Positions 2,427 through 44,778 of a stretch of DNA of 64,000 bases are shown one piece after another. How positions within the stretch are numbered: position 1 is the stretch's first letter; each line of letters starts with the position of its first letter. The notes below the pieces were generated by a model. That model was not told the DNA's origin, ran no database searches, and worked only from the letters and a program-made list of their open reading frames with translations. Made by a program: the position numbers and the translations under genes. The stretch spans positions 248,001 to 312,000 of the forward strand of contig JAKRSF010000003.1 in assembly GCA_022402445.1 (NCBI GenBank), in the 5' to 3' direction. The DNA comes from Cyanobacteriota bacterium (GTDB lineage: Bacteria > Cyanobacteriota > Cyanobacteriia > CACIAM-69d).

Positions 2427-2672
2427 ATGGCCGCCAAGCACCGGCGAGTTCAGTTCAATCCAGCGGTGCGGGAGTTTGTCTTGGATCGCGACGGTCACCG
2501 CTGCAACAGTTGCCAATGTCCAGGCAGCGTCGCCCCACTCGAAATTGATCACATCATCCCCCTCGCCCTCGGGGGCACCAACGACCTGAGCAATCTCCAA
2601 ATCCTGTGCAGTTCCTGTAATCGCCAAAAGCGCGATCGCCTTGATCCCCGCTTTCAACGGCGCTGGACTTGA
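2427..2672 (+). CDS. HNH endonuclease
   Basis: Small (81 residue) nuclease-fold protein. A CxxC pair (CNSC) is followed by the DHIIPL histidine strand, an asparagine in the NDLSNLQ turn, and a second CxxC pair (CSSC) and Asn-Arg. This is a complete HNH/zinc-ribbon module of the kind found in McrA-like proteins and free-standing HNH enzymes. A good ribosome binding site (AGGAG) sits about eight bases upstream of the ATG. There are no extra domains, so its substrate is unknown; it is not beside a methyltransferase or phage genes. It could be a repair or restriction-type nuclease. Confidence 0.88.
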   Translation: MAAKHRRVQFNPAVREFVLDRDGHRCNSCQCPGSVAPLEIDHIIPLALGGTNDLSNLQILCSSCNRQKRDRLDPRFQRRWT

Positions 2673-36742: not shown

Positions 36743-36892
36743 GGAGACCGGGGGAAGGATAGGCTAGGGGCGGGGGAGGTTTCTCATCCATGGCCCCCCG
36801 CGATCGCGGCGTCCCGGTATCGATGAGTTGTCCCATTCTTTTGCAGCCCGTACCCCGTGAACGCTCCGCCGCCGCCAACCCTGCCCCCTTCG

Positions 36893-39061
36893 ATGCCCCG
36901 ATGGCGGCCAGTGGGGTCGTTTCTGGCGTCGGTGCTGGTGGTGGCGCTGGCCTATGGGGGGGCGGCGCTGCTGGCGGTGAACCTGCCGGGGGTGCAAACC
37001 ATTGGCGCGTCGGTGTGGCCCGCTTCGGGCATCGCGATCGCGGCGCTGCTGCTGGGGGGCAAACGGCTTTGGATTGCCATTCCCCTGGGCACCCAGCTCT
37101 TTGACTGGCTCGATCCGAGCCCCACCTACTGGATTTTGGGGATTTTGGGCATCGCTGGAGCCACAGGACAGGCGCTGATTGCCCATTGGCTTCTGAAGCG
37201 TGTTGGTTTTGATCGCCACTTTCGGCGGGCCAGTGATGCCCTCAAATTTTTACTCCTCGCGGCCCTGGGGGCGACGCAAATTAGCTGCACCTGCGGAACC
37301 CTGGCCCTGGTGCTGCAAGGGCTAATTCCGGTGGAGGAATATTGGTCCGTCCGCAGTAGCTGGTGGCTGGGGGACACGATGGGGGTGCTGATTTTTGCGC
37401 CGCTGATCCTTCAGGTGGCCGCCGCCCTGCGCCCGGATGCCGCGACGCCCCGCTCCCCCTGGCCGAGCGATCGCCCCCGCCGGTTCGTCCTGGGGATTTT
37501 GCTGGGCCTGGCGATCGCCACCACCGTTGCTGTTTTCCTCAGCCGCGTCAATGCGGATCTGGGGGACTATCCCATTGAATACATTCCCGTCCTGTTCGTC
37601 CTGTGGATTGCCATTCAGTTTGATCGGCGGCTGGCGGTTCTCACTTCATTTCTGGTGGCGGTCATCGCGATCGGCGGCAGTTCCCAGGGGCGCGGGCCGT
37701 TTTTTGCCCCCAAAAAAGTCATCATCGACGGGCAAGTCCAGGTCATTGAACAGGTGCTAACCCAAGGGGGCGAAACCCAAGGGGAGGCACGAATTTTGCA
37801 ACTGCAAGCGTTTTTAGGGGTCACGACTTCTACGGCCCTGCTCCTCTCATCGGCCCTCGGGGAACAGCGGGAGGCGGCGCGATCGCTCCGGCACAATGAA
37901 CGGAAATATCGCGAACTGGTGCAAAATGCCAACAGCATCATCATTAAACTGGATCGCGACGGCAAGATCGTCTTTTTCAATGAATTTGCCCAGGACTTTT
38001 TCGGCTACTCAGAATCAGAAATTCTAGGCCAAAGTCCCATGGGAACGATTATCCCCATGACGGAAAGTACTGGGCGAGATTTAAACGAATTCTTTAACCA
38101 TTTGCTTAAGCAGCCAGAGCAATTTAGCCATGCCGAGAACGAAAACCAACGGCGCAATGGCGATCGCGTCTGGGTCACCTGGTCCAACAAACCCATCTTT
38201 GATGAGGCGGGCCAATTTGAAGGCATCCTCTGCATCGGCACCGACACCACCGAACAGCGACGCATTTCCCAGGAACTCAAACTGCTCAATGAACAGCTAG
38301 AAACCCGCGTAGCAGAGCGGACCCAAGCCCTCCAGCAGCAGCAGGAAAAGGCAGAATATTTATTGCTCAATATCCTACCCAAACCCATCGCTGATCGCCT
38401 TAGCCAAGACGTTTTTCCCATCGCCGATTTATTTGACGATGTAACCGTTCTCTTCGCCGATATTGTTGACTTCACCAGCTTTGCGGCGGAGCGATCGCCC
38501 CTGGAGGTGGTGGAGCGGCTCAACGGCATTTTCTCCTGCTTTGATCGCCTAGCGGAAGTCTACGGCCTCGAAAAAATCAAGACCATTGGTGATGCCTACA
38601 TGGCCGTGGGTGGTCTGCCGGTCCCCCGTGACGATCATGCGGCCGATGTGGCGGATATGGCCCTGGCGATGCAGCGCGCGATCGGCGACTATCGCAAGCC
38701 GGACGGTAGCCCCTTTCAGGTACGCATTGGCATCCATGCGGGCAGCGCCGTGGCGGGCACCATTGGCCTCAAAAAATTCATCTATGACCTGTGGGGCGAT
38801 ACGGTCAATGTGGCGAGCCGCATGGAATCCACCGGGCAGGCCAATGCAATTCAGGTGTCCGAAGAGGTCTATGGGCGGCTGCGCGATCGCTATCACCTAG
38901 AGCTTCGGGGCCGGATCAGCGTCAAGGGACGGGGCACCATGACAACCTATTGGCTCTTGGGTAAGCATGGCGACGAAGCCCTAGGAAACGGTCACTTTAA
39001 TAGTCCCTCTCCAGCGGCGAGTAATGGCGCAGTTTCTCCGTCTTCGGGACTTTTCTCCTAG
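36893..39061 (+). CDS. Membrane sensor adenylyl cyclase (MASE1-PAS-class III cyclase)
   Basis: Makes cAMP from ATP in response to a membrane or PAS signal. Residues about 5-320 form a MASE1-like membrane sensor with about eight hydrophobic segments (starting VGSFLASVLVVALAYGGAALL). A PAS domain follows (about 330-455, ERKYRELVQNANSIIIKLDRDGK). A short coiled coil (RVAERTQALQQQQEK) leads to the cyclase domain (about 510-700). That domain has VTVLFADIVDFTSF (two metal Asp), EKIKTIGDAYMAVGG (adenine-selecting Lys), YDLWGDTVNVASRM (adenine-selecting Asp; transition-state Asn and Arg) and GIHAGSAVAG. These residues favour adenylyl over guanylyl cyclase. The GTG at 36857 is an alternative start. 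The end is 18 bases from the convergent KGK cluster. Confidence 0.88.
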   Translation: MPRWRPVGSFLASVLVVALAYGGAALLAVNLPGVQTIGASVWPASGIAIAALLLGGKRLWIAIPLGTQLFDWLDPSPTYWILGILGIAGATGQALIAHWLLKRVGFDRHFRRASDALKFLLLAALGATQISCTCGTLALVLQGLIPVEEYWSVRSSWWLGDTMGVLIFAPLILQVAAALRPDAATPRSPWPSDRPRRFVLGILLGLAIATTVAVFLSRVNADLGDYPIEYIPVLFVLWIAIQFDRRLAVLTSFLVAVIAIGGSSQGRGPFFAPKKVIIDGQVQVIEQVLTQGGETQGEARILQLQAFLGVTTSTALLLSSALGEQREAARSLRHNERKYRELVQNANSIIIKLDRDGKIVFFNEFAQDFFGYSESEILGQSPMGTIIPMTESTGRDLNEFFNHLLKQPEQFSHAENENQRRNGDRVWVTWSNKPIFDEAGQFEGILCIGTDTTEQRRISQELKLLNEQLETRVAERTQALQQQQEKAEYLLLNILPKPIADRLSQDVFPIADLFDDVTVLFADIVDFTSFAAERSPLEVVERLNGIFSCFDRLAEVYGLEKIKTIGDAYMAVGGLPVPRDDHAADVADMALAMQRAIGDYRKPDGSPFQVRIGIHAGSAVAGTIGLKKFIYDLWGDTVNVASRMESTGQANAIQVSEEVYGRLRDRYHLELRGRISVKGRGTMTTYWLLGKHGDEALGNGHFNSPSPAASNGAVSPSSGLFS

Positions 39062-39079
39062 AAGTTTCATCAGCTAGAA

Positions 39080-39394
39080 TCAAGAATCTCCTAGGCTTCG
39101 GATATCATCAAGGGGCGATTCATTAGCAGGGAGAGATTGTTCATCCTCCTCAACCAAAACTTCGATTGAGATTTTGATTTTTCCCCTGCGCCAAGGTTGC
39201 ATCGGCTCCAAAATCCAGCATGGATGACCATCTTCCATTATGAACTTACCGCCATAGCCATAGGAATTGAGTGCGCGCCGAATAGTCGCTTTCATATCCT
39301 GCCATCGACTCAATTCTTCAGAGGGTTGTTCGGAGTTGTTTGGGTCGTCCTTGAGAGAGACGATTGTCAAGTCATCCAAGTCTTTCTTTTTCAT
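39080..39394 (-). CDS. KGK-family-like small protein, copy 5
   Basis: Last and most divergent of five small paralogues (104 residues). It keeps the core pattern GHPCWILE...WRRGKIKISIEV and the tail ESPLDDIRSLGDS. The N-terminus (LDDLTIVSL) fits the other copies loosely. No membrane segment or signal peptide. An overlapping ATG 10 bases upstream (39404) in another frame begins with the same ten bases ATGAAAAAGA, so the local start sequence is duplicated. The gene ends 18 bases from the cyclase stop codon on the other strand. Function unknown. Confidence 0.68.
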   Translation of the reverse strand: MKKKDLDDLTIVSLKDDPNNSEQPSEELSRWQDMKATIRRALNSYGYGGKFIMEDGHPCWILEPMQPWRRGKIKISIEVLVEEDEQSLPANESPLDDIRSLGDS

Positions 39395-39433
39395 TCTTTT
39401 TCATTAAGTAAGCTTGCCTCAATCTCTAGCATT

Positions 39434-39819
39434 TTACTCGTTAGATAGACGCCTAATTTCGTCCAACGGAGAGTCTTCCGTTGTTCCAGTTAGGAGAGCA
39501 CATCAACGGTTTCCTCTTCTGGAGGGGCTGGGCAAAATTCTAGGATCAGGCGCACTCGTCCGCTCTGCCATGCGCGATCGCCAAAACGCAGCACATTGCA
39601 AGGCACCCCTTCGCCATCAAACCAAGCGCACTGATCAGAGTTCCAAAAAACTCTAAAATTAGCGTTTGACCAATTTGAATAGTTTGCCAAAATGCTGCCT
39701 ATTCGCGTGCAAAACTCTCTGACTGTAAAAGTCTGATTGCCAATACACAGTCTAAAGTCATTGTGAACATTTACCACTTCGTCAATATCGAGAGAGGAAA
39801 ACTTATCATCAGAATCCAT
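39434..39819 (-). CDS. KGK-family-like small protein, copy 4, frameshifted tail
   Basis: The main frame (39490-39819, 109 residues) gives a standard paralogue: KFSSLDIDEVV near the start, GVPCNVLRFGDRAWQSGRVRLILEFCPA in the core. It then stops after EEETVDVLS. In the -1 frame the same DNA continues to a stop at 39434 and encodes TEDSPLDEIRRLSNE, the conserved family tail. One base has therefore been lost somewhere between about 39530 and 39480, or there is a -1 translational frameshift. No classic slippery heptamer is visible at the junction, so a mutation or sequencing error is more likely. Confidence 0.7.
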
Positions 39820-39871
39820 TATTGTTTCACCGCTGCTTGAAGGTTTTCGACTTATTGAGCGTAAATTGGCG

Positions 39872-40228
39872 CTACTCTTGAGGATTAGAAAGCTGACGAA
39901 TTGAATCTAGGGGTGAAGGCTCATCGCTTCTCGGCTGGTGAGGCATTTCCAACGACTCTTCATCAGACTCATCTGGACAGAACTCTAGCGTGAAGCGAAT
40001 ATGACCACTTTGCCAAGAACGCTGTCCAAAACGCCATGCTCTACAGGGCATCCCTTGTTCCTCCAAAAGAGCATAGTGATGTCCGCCCAAGGAGCTTTTG
40101 AATGTCTGCTGAAAGGCAACCAGAAATTCTTGAACAGTGCAGGTTAAATTGACTCTACTCAATTTAAATTCATCTGAAATTCCTAGCACTTCATCCGGAT
40201 CTAGGGCTTTGAAATCTGGTTCGCTCAT
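39872..40228 (-). CDS. KGK-family-like small protein, copy 3
   Basis: Third of five tandem paralogues, 118 residues from the ATG at 40228 (MSEPDFKALDPDEVLGI). Core: GMPCRAWRFGQRSWQSGHIRFTLEFCPD. Tail: DEPSPLDSIRQLSNPQE, preceded by an acidic stretch. The family resembles the cyanobacterial KGK domain (Pfam KGK, function unknown), recognised from memory. It starts ten bases after the stop of copy 2, so they are in one transcription unit. There is no predicted membrane segment. Confidence 0.75.
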   Translation of the reverse strand: MSEPDFKALDPDEVLGISDEFKLSRVNLTCTVQEFLVAFQQTFKSSLGGHHYALLEEQGMPCRAWRFGQRSWQSGHIRFTLEFCPDESDEESLEMPHQPRSDEPSPLDSIRQLSNPQE

Positions 40229-40238
40229 GAGTTTCCAG

Positions 40239-40625
40239 TTATTGAGAATCAGAAAATTGGCGAATGTCGTCAAGGGGTGATGTCTCAGTGGGAGAAGCGC
40301 TTTCGGTCAATTCTACATCGTCGGGAAGAAATTCCAGAGTTAGACGCACTCGACCAGAGCACCACTGGTGGGAGCCGAACTGCAAAATCTTGCAAGGAAC
40401 GCCTGCCTCAGAAAACCAGCCATTCCGCTCCTCATTCCACTCCTGTACAGGATGCTCAAGGCCGTAGTTTTCAACTAAGTCCGCATGTTCCTTGAGGGGG
40501 CTTTGCAAGGATGCGATAATATCCTGAGCCCTTGCGATTTCGTGTCCCAACACAAGCTGTGCCTGAAGGGGAACCGCGATAGGCTCGTCGCGATGAACGG
40601 TTTGGAATTCTTTTGGTTGATTCAT
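40239..40625 (-). CDS. KGK-family-like small protein, copy 2
   Basis: Second of the five, 128 residues from ATG 40625 (MNQPKEFQTVHRDEP). It has a longer N-terminal region with QAQLVLGHEIARAQDIIASLQSP, then the core GVPCKILQFGSHQWCSGRVRLTLEFLPD and the tail TETSPLDDIRQFSDSQ. In this copy the first residue after Trp is Cys instead of Gln (WCSG versus WQSG). It starts ten bases after the stop of copy 1. No recognised catalytic motif. Confidence 0.75.
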   Translation of the reverse strand: MNQPKEFQTVHRDEPIAVPLQAQLVLGHEIARAQDIIASLQSPLKEHADLVENYGLEHPVQEWNEERNGWFSEAGVPCKILQFGSHQWCSGRVRLTLEFLPDDVELTESASPTETSPLDDIRQFSDSQ

Positions 40626-40635
40626 AACTTCAAGC

Positions 40636-40929
40636 TCAGGAAGAAATTTCTCGAATATCGTCCAATGGCGATGGTGGATCAACAGATTGCGATTGATCTG
40701 GCACAAAAACAATTTCAATTTTCAGATGGCCAGACTGCCAACCGCCGCCAGCTTCTTTCAGAACTTGGCATGGCAATCCTTGACTTAAAATTAGCCTTTG
40801 GCGTGCATGAAAGTGCCGTGTCATATTGTCATACATCTCTCCAAACAAAAAGGTTTTTGATGGAATGGAATGGCCCACATAGGGCTGCTCAACACTTACA
40901 ACGTCCTTTGAGTTTAGGGGCTCGGGCAT
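40636..40929 (-). CDS. KGK-family-like small protein, copy 1
   Basis: First and shortest of the five (97 residues), from ATG 40929 with an upstream GAGGAG about 10 bases away. It begins MPEPLNSKDVVSVEQPYVGHS. The core is GLPCQVLKEAGGGWQSGHLKIEIVFVPD and the tail PPSPLDDIREISS. It lies 29 bases after the stop codon of the dynamin-like gene, in the same direction, so it is probably in the same operon. The role is unknown; the shared tail looks like a docking peptide (inference). Confidence 0.74.
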   Translation of the reverse strand: MPEPLNSKDVVSVEQPYVGHSIPSKTFLFGEMYDNMTRHFHARQRLILSQGLPCQVLKEAGGGWQSGHLKIEIVFVPDQSQSVDPPSPLDDIREISS

Positions 40930-40958
40930 TTCTACAACTCTCCTCGTTACGCAAACCT

Positions 40959-43370
40959 TCAAATTTCTACTAGGGGCAAAGCTAGCCGATCGCACCCTGC
41001 CGCCGTCAGAACCTGATCTACCACCTCAATTGCTCCATTGTAGGTTGCGATCGCATCTTCGAGAGCCTGCTGCTGTCCTTCTAGGGCATCCAGTTGGGCC
41101 TGGGCCTCCTGTTCAAGAACCTTTTCCAAATGCTTGCGCGCCCGCCCATAAAGCTGCACTACGATGGCTTGATATTCCGTCGCCAACTCCAGCACATCTC
41201 GCTTTAGCGTTTGATGCACCGCTTGACGAAATGTGCTTTTAATCGTCTTCGTCACCTTCGGCTCAAAATCCAACTTGAGGAGTTGTCGAACCGCCGGTTC
41301 CGCCAAAGCCATGGATGCCCCATCAAAGCTGGTGGCCGCCTGCACCAAAACCTGCTGAAACTGAAAGAGGGATGGCGTATTTTCCTTATAGAATTCTGGA
41401 TTTTCGCGCACGTAGCGATCGCACTCCGTACTCGCCGCACTTCTCAACTCCAGCCGCACGCGATCGCCCACCGCCCGCAGACGTTCCAGAAATTCCGCAT
41501 CATCACCCACCAAACGACAAAGATCGCGGTAATAAGGTCGGTGCATAATTCGATCAATCAACATCGCAAATAAATTGGTAATAATTCGCTCCGTTTCCCT
41601 CACTAGGATTTCTTCTAATTCGTTGGCAAGGTGGTAAAACGCCTCGACTAAAATCGCCAGTAGCGGTGCAGTGGAGTTGCGAGGATGGGCCAAGGTTGCC
41701 CGACGATAGGCCGCCTCCACCGAAAAATTAGAGAGCAACGCATCTAGGCGTTGAACCATGTGGATTTGTAGGCTCCTAAAATCCTCCTCGAATGCTTCGC
41801 AGTGGTTCGTAACGATCGCGTTGATTTCTTCACTAAGATGCTGGTGCAAATCCCGCGCGATCGCGAGGAGGTCCTGATTGAGCTGTTCCAGTTGCCGCGC
41901 CTGCAATCCTTCAATTTCGCGTGGTTGACAGCTTAGCTCGCGCCAACGATCTTCATAGCTACGTTTAAGATTTGAGCAGATCGGCAATAGATCATCCGCT
42001 AAATTCTTAAAGAGCTGGGGACGCTTCTCTGTCTGAAGATAATTGAGAATCGCTTCACTGAATTCTTCAATACCACTATCTTCAATCAATTGTTCAATCA
42101 AGGCAGATCCATAGGTCTGGAGAATGCGCAGGTAATTATCATTCTGGCTTTCGTAGTTGTTGACCGAAATCCGAAAACGATCCGTCGGCAGCTTCCCTGA
42201 ACTGGAGCAGTATCGATTGAACTCATAAACAAACTGAGGTGTTTCTTCCTCCTCCCCAAGGGCCTGACCTTCATTGGAGAAGAGACCATCAAGTCCGTAG
42301 TGATTGCTCTCACCCGTTTTTCGCAGCAAACTCCCATAGAAGCCGAGAAGAGCGCTGGTCTGAAACGTGCGAAAATTTCCGGAGAACTGACTCGATAGGA
42401 GCGCCTCAAAACGCTGTCGGCGCTGGGAGTTATACCAGGTTTCGTCCACGCGATTGAAAACAAAAAAGACGCGATCGCGGATACCTGCATTGCGGCTGAT
42501 CATTTCGAGGAGGCGCGTTTCTTCACGGCTCATTTCCCCAGCGGCGGCAGGTTTGAGCACGGCCACCACGGCAGAGGTATCCGGATCCATAATCTTGCGA
42601 TCAGTCAGTTCCACATCCCGCTGCACGGGCGCATCAATGCCCGGTAAATCCACCAAAACGTTGCCATCCTCCAGCAGGGGATGGTGACAGTAATATTCGA
42701 TGCGCTTCAGAACCGCACTGTTGTAACCGCGCCGCGCATAGGCCGCTGCTTCACGCAGGTGACCAAACTGGAAATCTTCCATGGCATAGGTACGGTGCTG
42801 GCGGGGATCAATGCGATCGCGGTTTGCCTGCCATCCCTCGATCAGGAGCCGTAGGGCATTGGCCCGCTTCGCCCGCTCTGACCTCGCCTCGCCCCCCTCC
42901 TGCTGAATGATGGCCGTACATGCCTGGGCGATCGCGCCCCCCCGCTCCGGCTCCGTTTCCGTCAGGGCGGTCCCCAACGCCGCAGGCAACCCCAAGGCCG
43001 TCACAAGCAGACGCGCCTCTTCCACCAGCTCCATCCCACTCGCAAACGTTAGGACCACCCGTTCCTGGTCGGGCTTCGCATAGGCGATATAGCATTCCGT
43101 GCCTGTGGCGTGGCCCTCGGCGCTGTAGAGCAGTTCCCGTCCCAGAAGGGCATTAATCAGCATGGATTTGCCTGCACTGAAGGCCCCAGCAAAGGCAATT
43201 TCAAAGGTGGGCGAGATCGCCTTGCGCAGGGACGCCCGCACCGCCGCATCATCAAGCCCGTGGGGACGCTCTAGGTCATGGGCACAGCGCAGCAGGGTTT
43301 CGACGGCGGATTCCAAGGAAGGGTTGCCGCTGGCTGAGGTGGCGATCGCGGCGGGGGAGTCGTCAGACAT
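40959..43370 (-). CDS. Dynamin-like GTPase
   Basis: Bacterial dynamin-like protein of 803 residues (from ATG 43370). The GTPase motifs are G1 GAFSAGKS (62-69), G3 DLPGID (241-246) and G4 NRVD (306-309, close to the NKxD consensus). A long helical region follows, with heptad-like segments (EIEGLQARQLEQLNQDLLAIARDLHQHLSEE and KHLEKVLEQEAQAQLDALEGQQQALEDAI in pieces), as in the stalk of dynamins. Known bacterial members remodel membranes or protect them under stress or phage attack. It is followed by five small tandem paralogues and is divergent from a repeat protein. It is not paired with a second dynamin, which many bacterial loci have. Confidence 0.88.
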   Translation of the reverse strand: MSDDSPAAIATSASGNPSLESAVETLLRCAHDLERPHGLDDAAVRASLRKAISPTFEIAFAGAFSAGKSMLINALLGRELLYSAEGHATGTECYIAYAKPDQERVVLTFASGMELVEEARLLVTALGLPAALGTALTETEPERGGAIAQACTAIIQQEGGEARSERAKRANALRLLIEGWQANRDRIDPRQHRTYAMEDFQFGHLREAAAYARRGYNSAVLKRIEYYCHHPLLEDGNVLVDLPGIDAPVQRDVELTDRKIMDPDTSAVVAVLKPAAAGEMSREETRLLEMISRNAGIRDRVFFVFNRVDETWYNSQRRQRFEALLSSQFSGNFRTFQTSALLGFYGSLLRKTGESNHYGLDGLFSNEGQALGEEEETPQFVYEFNRYCSSSGKLPTDRFRISVNNYESQNDNYLRILQTYGSALIEQLIEDSGIEEFSEAILNYLQTEKRPQLFKNLADDLLPICSNLKRSYEDRWRELSCQPREIEGLQARQLEQLNQDLLAIARDLHQHLSEEINAIVTNHCEAFEEDFRSLQIHMVQRLDALLSNFSVEAAYRRATLAHPRNSTAPLLAILVEAFYHLANELEEILVRETERIITNLFAMLIDRIMHRPYYRDLCRLVGDDAEFLERLRAVGDRVRLELRSAASTECDRYVRENPEFYKENTPSLFQFQQVLVQAATSFDGASMALAEPAVRQLLKLDFEPKVTKTIKSTFRQAVHQTLKRDVLELATEYQAIVVQLYGRARKHLEKVLEQEAQAQLDALEGQQQALEDAIATYNGAIEVVDQVLTAAGCDRLALPLVEI

Positions 43371-43719
43371 GGTGGGAAAAGAACTTAAAAGAGACTTATA
43401 ACCTAGTCTGCCACAATTAAGAACCAGGCGACCAAGCCACGGAGGGGCATTCATAGGCCCATCGCGCGATCGCGCGCCCCCTCACCAAACCCGTTCCCAA
43501 ACCGTAAACTTCCGTAAATTTACGGGGAACTCTTTTGGCCTTGCGATAGTCTAACTCAAGCAAGCGGACAAAAGTATCTTGTAAAAAACTAAAAAATTCT
43601 GCTTTTTACCACAACTAAAGGATCTATTCCTTAGGGGTGGAGTGAATCTGGGCTTTAGTGTCAAGTCCATGGGAGCCCGCTGACTGCGGTGCCTATGACC
43701 TTTTCTGGAGAGACCTTGG
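43371..43719. other. Divergent intergenic region, dynamin-like/repeat protein
   Basis: No gene. AT-rich patches (about 43555-43640) and the palindrome at 43512-43525 make this a likely two-way promoter region. A TGGAGAG ribosome-binding-type stretch precedes the repeat protein start. Confidence 0.55.
43512..43525. promoter_or_regulatory. Palindromic candidate operator
   Basis: Perfect 14-bp palindrome CCGTAAATTTACGG, preceded by a third CCGTAAA word ten bases upstream (43502-43508). One helical turn between words fits a dimer-binding site. The cognate regulator is unknown. Confidence 0.55.
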
Positions 43720-44778
43720 ATGAACGCGATCGCGAACTACCAACGCTGGGACGTGTCCTTTGATGAGGCATTTTATCTGCAAACCAACCCTGATGTGGCC
43801 GCCGCCGTTGCCGCTGGAGCCATTCCGTCTGGGGCAGTTCATTTTGTCAACTTTGGCGTTAAGGAAGGACGCATTGGCAAACCGGGCCAACTCTACGATG
43901 AAGCCACCTACCTAGCTGAAAATCCCGATGTGGCCGCCGCTGTTTCCGCTGGGGCTTTCGTCAGTGGCTTCGAGCACTTTGCCCTCTTTGGTCGCCAAGA
44001 AGGCCGCACCTTTTCGCCCTATTTCGACGAGGAATGGTACCGAAAACGCTATCCCGATGTGGAAGCCGCGATCCAATCGGGGGCGTTCGCCAGCGCTTTT
44101 GATCACTACCTAGCCTTTGGGCGCAATCCATCGGAACGGCGCAGCATCTCGCCCCTCAATGAATTTATCTACCTGCGCAGGAATCCTGATGTCGCCAACG
44201 CCGTTGACACCGATCTGTTCTTTTCAGGACAACAGCACTATGAGCAAAATGGCCGCGCGGAGGGGCGTTCAGTAAATATTACCGGCACTCAAGGCAATGA
44301 TAATTTAGTCGCAAGTGACAATGGGGATGTCCTGACGGGGGTTGCAGTCGGTGTGCGCCAAGGGCGGAACCCTGAACCCCAGGCCCAAAACTTTTCAACC
44401 TATGATTCGGTTGGTCGCGGTGAGATTGATACCCTCACGGGGGGAGCCGGACCCGATGTCTTCATTTTGGCCGGTCTGTTTCCGTCGGGGGGGGTCGGTA
44501 ATCTAATTGCTCCTTGGAGCTTTTACATTGCCAATGATCTAGCGCTCGCGGATCAGGACTATGCGGAAATCCGCAATTTTGATCCTACCCAGGATCGCAT
44601 TATGGTTTCGGGCGTGATTACGGTGGACATTGGCAATGACGCGGCCATTTTTTCACGGCGCGGCCCGTCCCCCGGTAACGTGGATCTGGTCAGTCGGGTC
44701 ATTGGGGTTGGGGCCGACCAATTGCAGGGGGCCTTCATCGATCCATTCGGGGGATCAAGCAGCGCACTAAGGGGCTAA
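43720..44778 (+). CDS. Repeat protein with RTX-like C-terminus
   Basis: 352 residues with four repeats of about 40 residues: xYLxxNPDVAxAVxAGxxxSxxxHFxxFGxxEGR at about 14-53, 58-97, 101-140 and 145-184. This repeat recurs in cyanobacterial and proteobacterial secreted calcium-binding proteins. The C-terminal half (GTQGNDNLVASDNGDVLTG, DTLTGGAGPDVFILAG) is RTX-like, with Gly/Asp turns. No Sec signal peptide is visible, which would fit type I secretion, but no type I secretion genes are nearby. It is divergent from the dynamin-like gene and may be controlled by the palindrome at 43512-43525. Confidence 0.78.
   Translation: MNAIANYQRWDVSFDEAFYLQTNPDVAAAVAAGAIPSGAVHFVNFGVKEGRIGKPGQLYDEATYLAENPDVAAAVSAGAFVSGFEHFALFGRQEGRTFSPYFDEEWYRKRYPDVEAAIQSGAFASAFDHYLAFGRNPSERRSISPLNEFIYLRRNPDVANAVDTDLFFSGQQHYEQNGRAEGRSVNITGTQGNDNLVASDNGDVLTGVAVGVRQGRNPEPQAQNFSTYDSVGRGEIDTLTGGAGPDVFILAGLFPSGGVGNLIAPWSFYIANDLALADQDYAEIRNFDPTQDRIMVSGVITVDIGNDAAIFSRRGPSPGNVDLVSRVIGVGADQLQGAFIDPFGGSSSALRG

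What the first reader, a model, noticed from the sequence alone, without database searches (positions are those of the whole stretch)
39080..43370. Dynamin-like GTPase followed by five tandem KGK-like small proteins
Seen: a complete dynamin-like GTPase gene (40959-43370, minus strand) is followed in the same direction by five small paralogues at 40929, 40625, 40228, 39819 and 39394, with gaps of ten bases in two cases. All share GxPC...WxxG(R/H/K)(V/I/L)(R/K) and end in SPLD(D/E/S)IR. Known: bacterial dynamins act on membranes; KGK is an uncharacterised cyanobacterial family. Inference: the small proteins may be partners, adaptors or decoys of the GTPase, since a shared short tail looks like a docking peptide. 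Divergence between the five suggests different ligands. I know no published link between these families.
Basis: partly seen in the sequence, partly recalled or inferred. Interest (0 to 1): 0.88.

Follow-up and report, generated by a model that had tools for sequence, protein, structure and literature searches.

The report
Dynamin operon with tagged partner proteins
A cyanobacterial membrane-remodelling GTPase is followed by five small KGK proteins that, as in many relatives, share a short end-tag; that pairing was already published, but relatives show the tag is specific to the system, sometimes sits on the GTPase itself, and is inherited together with a small DNA-cutting (HNH) enzyme that nobody seems to have reported.

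Summary
Observation: real, with one correction. The dynamin-like GTPase (DLP) and five same-strand KGK (PF08872) genes are there, but the fourth KGK's SPLDEIR tail lies out of frame behind its stop codon. Interpretation: the DLP-KGK link is already published ('KGK clade' of cyanobacterial DLPs; SynDLP of Synechocystis belongs to it), so 'no published link' is wrong.

New here: (1) In 195 genomes, 95/95 DLP-linked KGK matches are downstream on the same strand. The tail S-P-L-D-[DE]-[IL]-R marks DLP-associated KGKs; 0/28 listed KGKs from DLP-less genomes carry it. (2) The tail is found at the C-terminus of the DLP itself in two lineages, so it behaves as a module-wide tag rather than simply a peptide for the dynamin. 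(3) A small HNH nuclease is co-inherited with this DLP (62/70 DLP genomes versus 5/125 others), usually right after the KGKs; in this window it sits 37 kb away at 2427-2672. (4) This DLP has lost both cysteines of the disulfide described in SynDLP.

Best reading: a three-part DLP + tail-tagged KGK + HNH module. The tail as docking tag is inferred; the role (stress repair or defence) is open. No physical interaction was tested.

The parts
40959..43370 (-). Dynamin-like GTPase of the KGK clade (SynDLP type), 803 aa; P-loop GAFSAGKSMLINALL
   Evidence: Dynamin_N 1.4e-15; SynDLP/Slr0869 7zw6 E 6e-245; both BSE cysteines absent
40636..40929 (-). KGK1, 97 aa, ends SPLDDIREISS
   Evidence: PF08872 36.2 bits
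40239..40625 (-). KGK2, 128 aa, ends SPLDDIRQFSDSQ
   Evidence: PF08872 52.4 bits
39872..40228 (-). KGK3, 118 aa, ends SPLDSIRQLSNPQE
   Evidence: PF08872 43.7 bits; AlphaFold model pLDDT 81
39490..39819 (-). KGK4, 109 aa, stops before the tail
   Evidence: PF08872 35.7 bits, match ends at profile position 100
39453..39472 (-). Out-of-frame SPLDEIR tail remnant of KGK4, behind its stop codon
   Evidence: sequence; pattern hit G000:C6:287453-287472
39080..39394 (-). KGK5, 104 aa, ends SPLDDIRSLGDS
   Evidence: PF08872 33.8 bits
2427..2672 (+). Small HNH nuclease (81 aa), homologue of the one that follows DLP/KGK in relatives; here displaced about 37 kb
   Evidence: HNH_5 60.4 bits; best own-genome match of the HNH profile

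Best explanation
The locus is the operon-like core of a co-inherited cyanobacterial module with three kinds of protein: a SynDLP-type dynamin that remodels membranes, one to seven KGK proteins, and a small HNH nuclease. I think the KGKs are partner or adaptor subunits: a folded core with a variable N-terminal half, then an acidic flexible linker, then the tag S-P-L-D-[DE]-[IL]-R, by which they are gathered into one assembly. As the dynamin itself bears the tag in two lineages, the tag receptor is more likely a shared module component, or the dynamin acting in trans, than a site served only by KGKs. Shown: gene order, co-inheritance, tag specificity, tag on some dynamins. Inferred: physical docking, receptor identity, active nuclease, the role (membrane or stress response; possibly defence).
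For: 95/95 linked KGK matches downstream on the same strand in 40 genomes, 92 with profile matches reaching the tail; tail genomes versus DLP genomes Fisher 5e-20. The four apparent exceptions in DLP-less genomes lack SPLD[DE]IR when read. Tail conserved in 129 of 143 distinct linked KGK ORFs: L 128/129, D 127/129, R 128/129. DLPs ending SPLDDLRQQMNLNS or ELDSILDDLR. HNH in 62/70 DLP genomes versus 5/125 (Fisher 1e-35), 49 linked copies all downstream on the same strand, within-family CMH p 1e-10. Conserved neighbours across 21 loci are only DLP, KGK and HNH, apart from antisense reading of the DLP and features of a few loci. KGK-HNH pairs away from the DLP in two genomes. Synechocystis slr0868-slr0871 rise together 6-16 fold in a lexA mutant (PMC4759255).
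Against: No interaction was measured or modelled. The tail is poorly ordered in the model of a KGK and disordered in that of a tail-bearing DLP (pLDDT 28-38). Many DLP genomes have HNH but no detected KGK, so KGKs are dispensable. Species are not independent; only family strata were used. KGK4 has lost its in-frame tail.
Confidence: 0.6

Rival explanations
1. One reading: each KGK docks by its tail directly onto the dynamin and acts as adaptor or regulator of its GTPase; the HNH gene is a bystander.
For: KGK/tail co-distribution with the DLP; KGK directly downstream, gaps of 10-29 nt.
Against: The tail sits on the DLP itself in two lineages; HNH tracks the DLP more closely than KGK does.
Confidence: 0.3
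2. The module is an anti-phage or anti-foreign-DNA system: the dynamin guards or seals membranes, KGKs are sensors or adaptors diversifying in an arms race, and HNH cuts DNA.
For: HNH co-inheritance; tandem, divergent and decaying KGK copies; a B. subtilis dynamin is linked to phage resistance (cited in PMC10104851).
Against: No PADLOC system match: the DLP hits LeoA/LeoBC mostly at the P-loop, HNH only generic nucleases. Mostly single copy per genome. No challenge data.
Confidence: 0.25
3. A membrane-stress operon: the genes are merely co-regulated (LexA-type stress control) and the tail is a turnover or localisation signal read by a general cell factor such as a protease.
For: lexA-dependent expression of slr0868-0871; SynDLP proposed in thylakoid repair (PMC9950537); tail near the C-terminus.
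Against: No protein outside KGKs in 21 genomes carried the full tail pattern (the DLP variant SPLDDLR is not covered by that pattern), unlike a general degradation tag.
Confidence: 0.2
4. Clustering is historical only: tandem duplication beside an unrelated gene, without functional coupling.
For: KGKs of other types live without a DLP.
Against: Same order and strand across many families; tail specificity; HNH retained in DLP genomes even when unlinked.
Confidence: 0.05

Closest known systems
KGK clade of cyanobacterial dynamin-like proteins, with SynDLP (Slr0869, PDB 7zw6) (PMC5827413, PMC10104851)
   Same: Homologous DLP (E 6e-245), extended P-loop GxxxxGKSxLINALL, KGK gene downstream.
   Different: Five tandem KGKs; both cysteines of the SynDLP C8-C777 disulfide are missing at the aligned positions (Asn and Val787); no HNH gene adjacent (it lies 37 kb off). 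The papers do not mention HNH in the text searched.
Pfam KGK domain PF08872
   Same: All five pass the gathering score.
   Different: Other members lack the SPLD tail and are not tied to a DLP.
Eleos (LeoA/LeoBC) dynamin-like defence system (PADLOC)
   Same: A dynamin-type GTPase.
   Different: Only weak matches, mostly around the P-loop; no second large GTPase partner; KGK and HNH instead.
Tandem A/B dynamins of Nostoc (NpBDLP) (PMC5827413)
   Same: Cyanobacterial dynamin with a linked partner gene.
   Different: The partner there is a second dynamin, not KGK/HNH.

Membership tests
KGK-clade cyanobacterial DLP (SynDLP type) | Dynamin GTPase domain with extended P-loop GxxxxGKS/TxL/INALL/I | tested here: met
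   Dynamin_N 58.1 bits versus cut-off 27; GAFSAGKSMLINALL in the sequence; motif definition
KGK-clade cyanobacterial DLP (SynDLP type) | Closest by sequence to SynDLP | tested here: met
   7zw6 E 6e-245, next unrelated PDB hit 6e-5
KGK-clade cyanobacterial DLP (SynDLP type) | KGK-domain gene encoded downstream | tested here: met
   five, same strand
KGK-clade cyanobacterial DLP (SynDLP type) | BSE disulfide cysteines (reported as conserved in the clade; not what defines it) | tested here: not met
   Asn and Val787 at the aligned positions; 104 of 113 DLPs have both, 6 lack both including this one
Pfam KGK PF08872 | Score above gathering cut-off | tested here: met
   33.8-52.4 versus 25.6 bits
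HNH nuclease (HNH_5 PF14279), window 2427-2672 | Score above cut-off, Cys4 and DH...N...N motif residues | tested here: met
   60.4 versus 27.5 bits; alignment A2; catalysis not testable here
Eleos (LeoBCA) defence system | LeoA plus LeoBC GTPases matched over their length | tested here: not met
   best LeoA stretch 26 residues around the P-loop; no partner

The most novel reading that the evidence does not exclude
SynDLP-type dynamins work as part of an undescribed three-part system (dynamin, tail-tagged KGK adaptors, HNH nuclease) joined by one linear tag, coupling membrane remodelling to DNA cleavage, for instance in phage or foreign-DNA exclusion.
Probability: 0.3. Interest if true: 0.85.

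Novelty: new variant of a known kind. Interest (0 to 1): 0.6.

Why it matters
SynDLP is a structurally solved bacterial dynamin without a known cellular job, and KGK is a family without function. A conserved tag shared by both, and a nuclease co-inherited with them, turn 'what does SynDLP do' into direct tests: tail pull-downs, HNH/KGK deletions, DNA and phage challenge. If the nuclease link is functional, the membrane-only view of this dynamin clade needs revision.

Tried and rejected
Redox idea (KGK GxPC cysteine exchanging with the DLP BSE disulfide): the window DLP lacks both BSE cysteines while all five KGKs keep theirs, and other KGKs have Gly or Ala there; dropped. KGK fold: AlphaFold model (pLDDT 81) has no significant Foldseek hit (best E 1.7) and only middling VIA-align matches (Z 4.5 to MDM2); not interpreted, and no claim of a new fold. 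Tail docking in cis: a tail-bearing Okeania DLP was modelled; the tail is disordered. Dynamin-KGK complex modelling was not available. Defence systems: no PADLOC assignment. RNA families: none in 38900-43700. Promoter and terminator scans at chance level. Tetrarepeat KGK protein as a fourth partner: adjacent in four loci only and pairs with GvpL/GvpF elsewhere; only a weak 56-residue match in this genome. The Synechocystis 6803 locus itself was not in the sampled genomes (nearest 75% identity).

Full report
OBSERVATION. The minus strand carries a DLP (40959-43370) and five KGK ORFs behind it. All five pass Pfam KGK's gathering score. Distances in coding order are 29, 10, 10, 52 and 95 nt, as in an operon. 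The statement that all five end in SPLD(D/E/S)IR fails for KGK4: its frame stops at ...EETVDVLS and SPLDEIR follows in another frame (39453-39472). The genome has a sixth KGK with an in-frame tail on another contig.

WHAT THE DYNAMIN IS. The only close solved relative is SynDLP, Slr0869 of Synechocystis PCC 6803 (E 6e-245). Jilly et al. 2018 (PMC5827413) defined a 'KGK clade' of cyanobacterial DLPs because a KGK gene typically follows; Gewehr et al. 2023 (PMC10104851) put SynDLP in it. SynDLP has a C8-C777 disulfide in its BSE domain, reported as conserved in the clade. In my alignment of 113 DLPs, 104 have both cysteines, 6 lack both, 3 lack one. The window protein is one of those lacking both (Asn at the N-terminal position, Val787). 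The joint loss fits a paired bond; this species has a natural variant without it.

KGK-DLP LINKAGE. In 195 genomes of the class, 70 encode this DLP and 86 a KGK at E 1e-5 or better. Of the 150 listed KGK matches, 95 lie near a DLP (within 6 kb downstream), all downstream on the same strand, in 40 genomes, 1-7 copies each. The same order recurs in named loci from Limnothrix, Oscillatoria, Okeania, Nostoc, Calothrix, Xenococcus and others. The list was cut at 150 rows, so weak KGKs are missed.

THE TAIL. 92 of 95 linked KGK matches reach the tail part of the profile. In the 24 listed DLP-less genomes with a KGK, 24 of 28 matches do not, and the four that seemed to (G099, G123, G133, G180) belong to a different KGK type ending in acidic DDIY/DEDY-like stretches. 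So no listed KGK from a DLP-less genome has the tail; for 24 of them this rests on profile ends only. In 143 distinct linked KGK ORFs the consensus is S-P-L-D-[DE]-[IL]-R with L, D and R nearly invariant in the 129 that have it, 2-15 residues before the C-terminus. A DNA pattern for SPLD[DE]IR found nothing but KGK genes in 21 genomes. Unlinked tail-bearing KGKs occur, in the listed data, only in genomes that also hold the DLP.

THE TAIL ON THE DYNAMIN. Five Okeania DLPs end ...SPLDDL[RK]xxMNLNS, and DLPs of a second genus (family f5) end ...ELD[SG]ILDDLR although the linker before it has diverged. In Trichodesmium, close to Okeania, a stop codon cuts the tail off and the remnant is decaying. 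So the tail is a tag that can sit on either protein. A model of a tail-bearing DLP leaves the tail disordered (pLDDT 28-38), which neither proves nor excludes binding in trans.

THE HNH GENE. Downstream of DLP/KGK, on the same strand, 16 of 20 first-round relatives have an 80-residue HNH protein; apart from antisense ORFs and features of a few loci, only DLP, KGK and HNH are conserved across the 21 neighbourhoods. With a 12-sequence profile, 62 of 70 DLP genomes hold it (98 bits or more) against 5 of 125 others (Fisher 1e-35); 49 copies are linked, all downstream on the same strand. Stratified by family, using only genomes whose family was shown, the association remains (CMH p 1e-10). Several DLP genomes keep HNH at a distant place; the window genome is one (2427-2672, plus strand, after a malate dehydrogenase-like ORF). 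In two genomes a KGK-HNH pair sits apart from the DLP. I found no paper on this link in the library searched, which lacks most subscription journals.

REGULATION. RNA-seq of a Synechocystis lexA mutant (PMC4759255) shows slr0868, slr0869 (SynDLP), slr0870 and slr0871 all raised 6-16 fold. Which of these are KGK or HNH was not verified; the nearest relative sampled (75% identical DLP) has DLP, three KGKs and HNH in a row.

MECHANISM. Shown: operon-like order, co-inheritance, tag specificity, tag on some dynamins. Inferred: the KGKs are partner subunits gathered by the tag through a flexible acidic linker; HNH is an active nuclease and part of the same process. Role: membrane/stress response or defence, undecided. 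Limits: no complex prediction, no experiments, phylogeny handled only by family strata, gene calls from stop-to-stop ORFs.

Noticed in passing
L061:5045-6547, L063:3366-5051, L089:4250-6559, L090:3717-5195: A 500-770 aa protein with four KGK-like repeats (no SPLD tail) is followed by a GvpL/GvpF gas-vesicle protein; the pair also occurs without the DLP.
   Followed up: partly
L083-L086, L184, L185, L190, L191: A distinct KGK type with acidic tyrosine-rich C-terminus (e.g. DDIY...DEDY), not linked to this DLP; in L184/L185 it neighbours a tilS-like gene.
   Followed up: partly
L087:4100-5027: Three tandem KGK ORFs without the tail in a genome without this DLP.
   Followed up: no
L066:6606-7183: A KGK whose core and tail (EFPLDDIRKAMNQ) are separated by what looks like an inserted repeat sequence.
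   Followed up: no
L126 and L121, just after the DLP stop codon: Trichodesmium DLPs lost the tail by a stop codon; the remnant downstream is decaying.
   Followed up: partly
window 43720-44778 (+): Protein with repeated NPDVAAAV...SG..HF..FG..EGR units, divergent from the DLP.
   Followed up: no
window 36857-39061 (+): Membrane sensor/adenylate-cyclase-like ORF that ends only 18 bases from the KGK5 stop, convergent with the operon.
   Followed up: no
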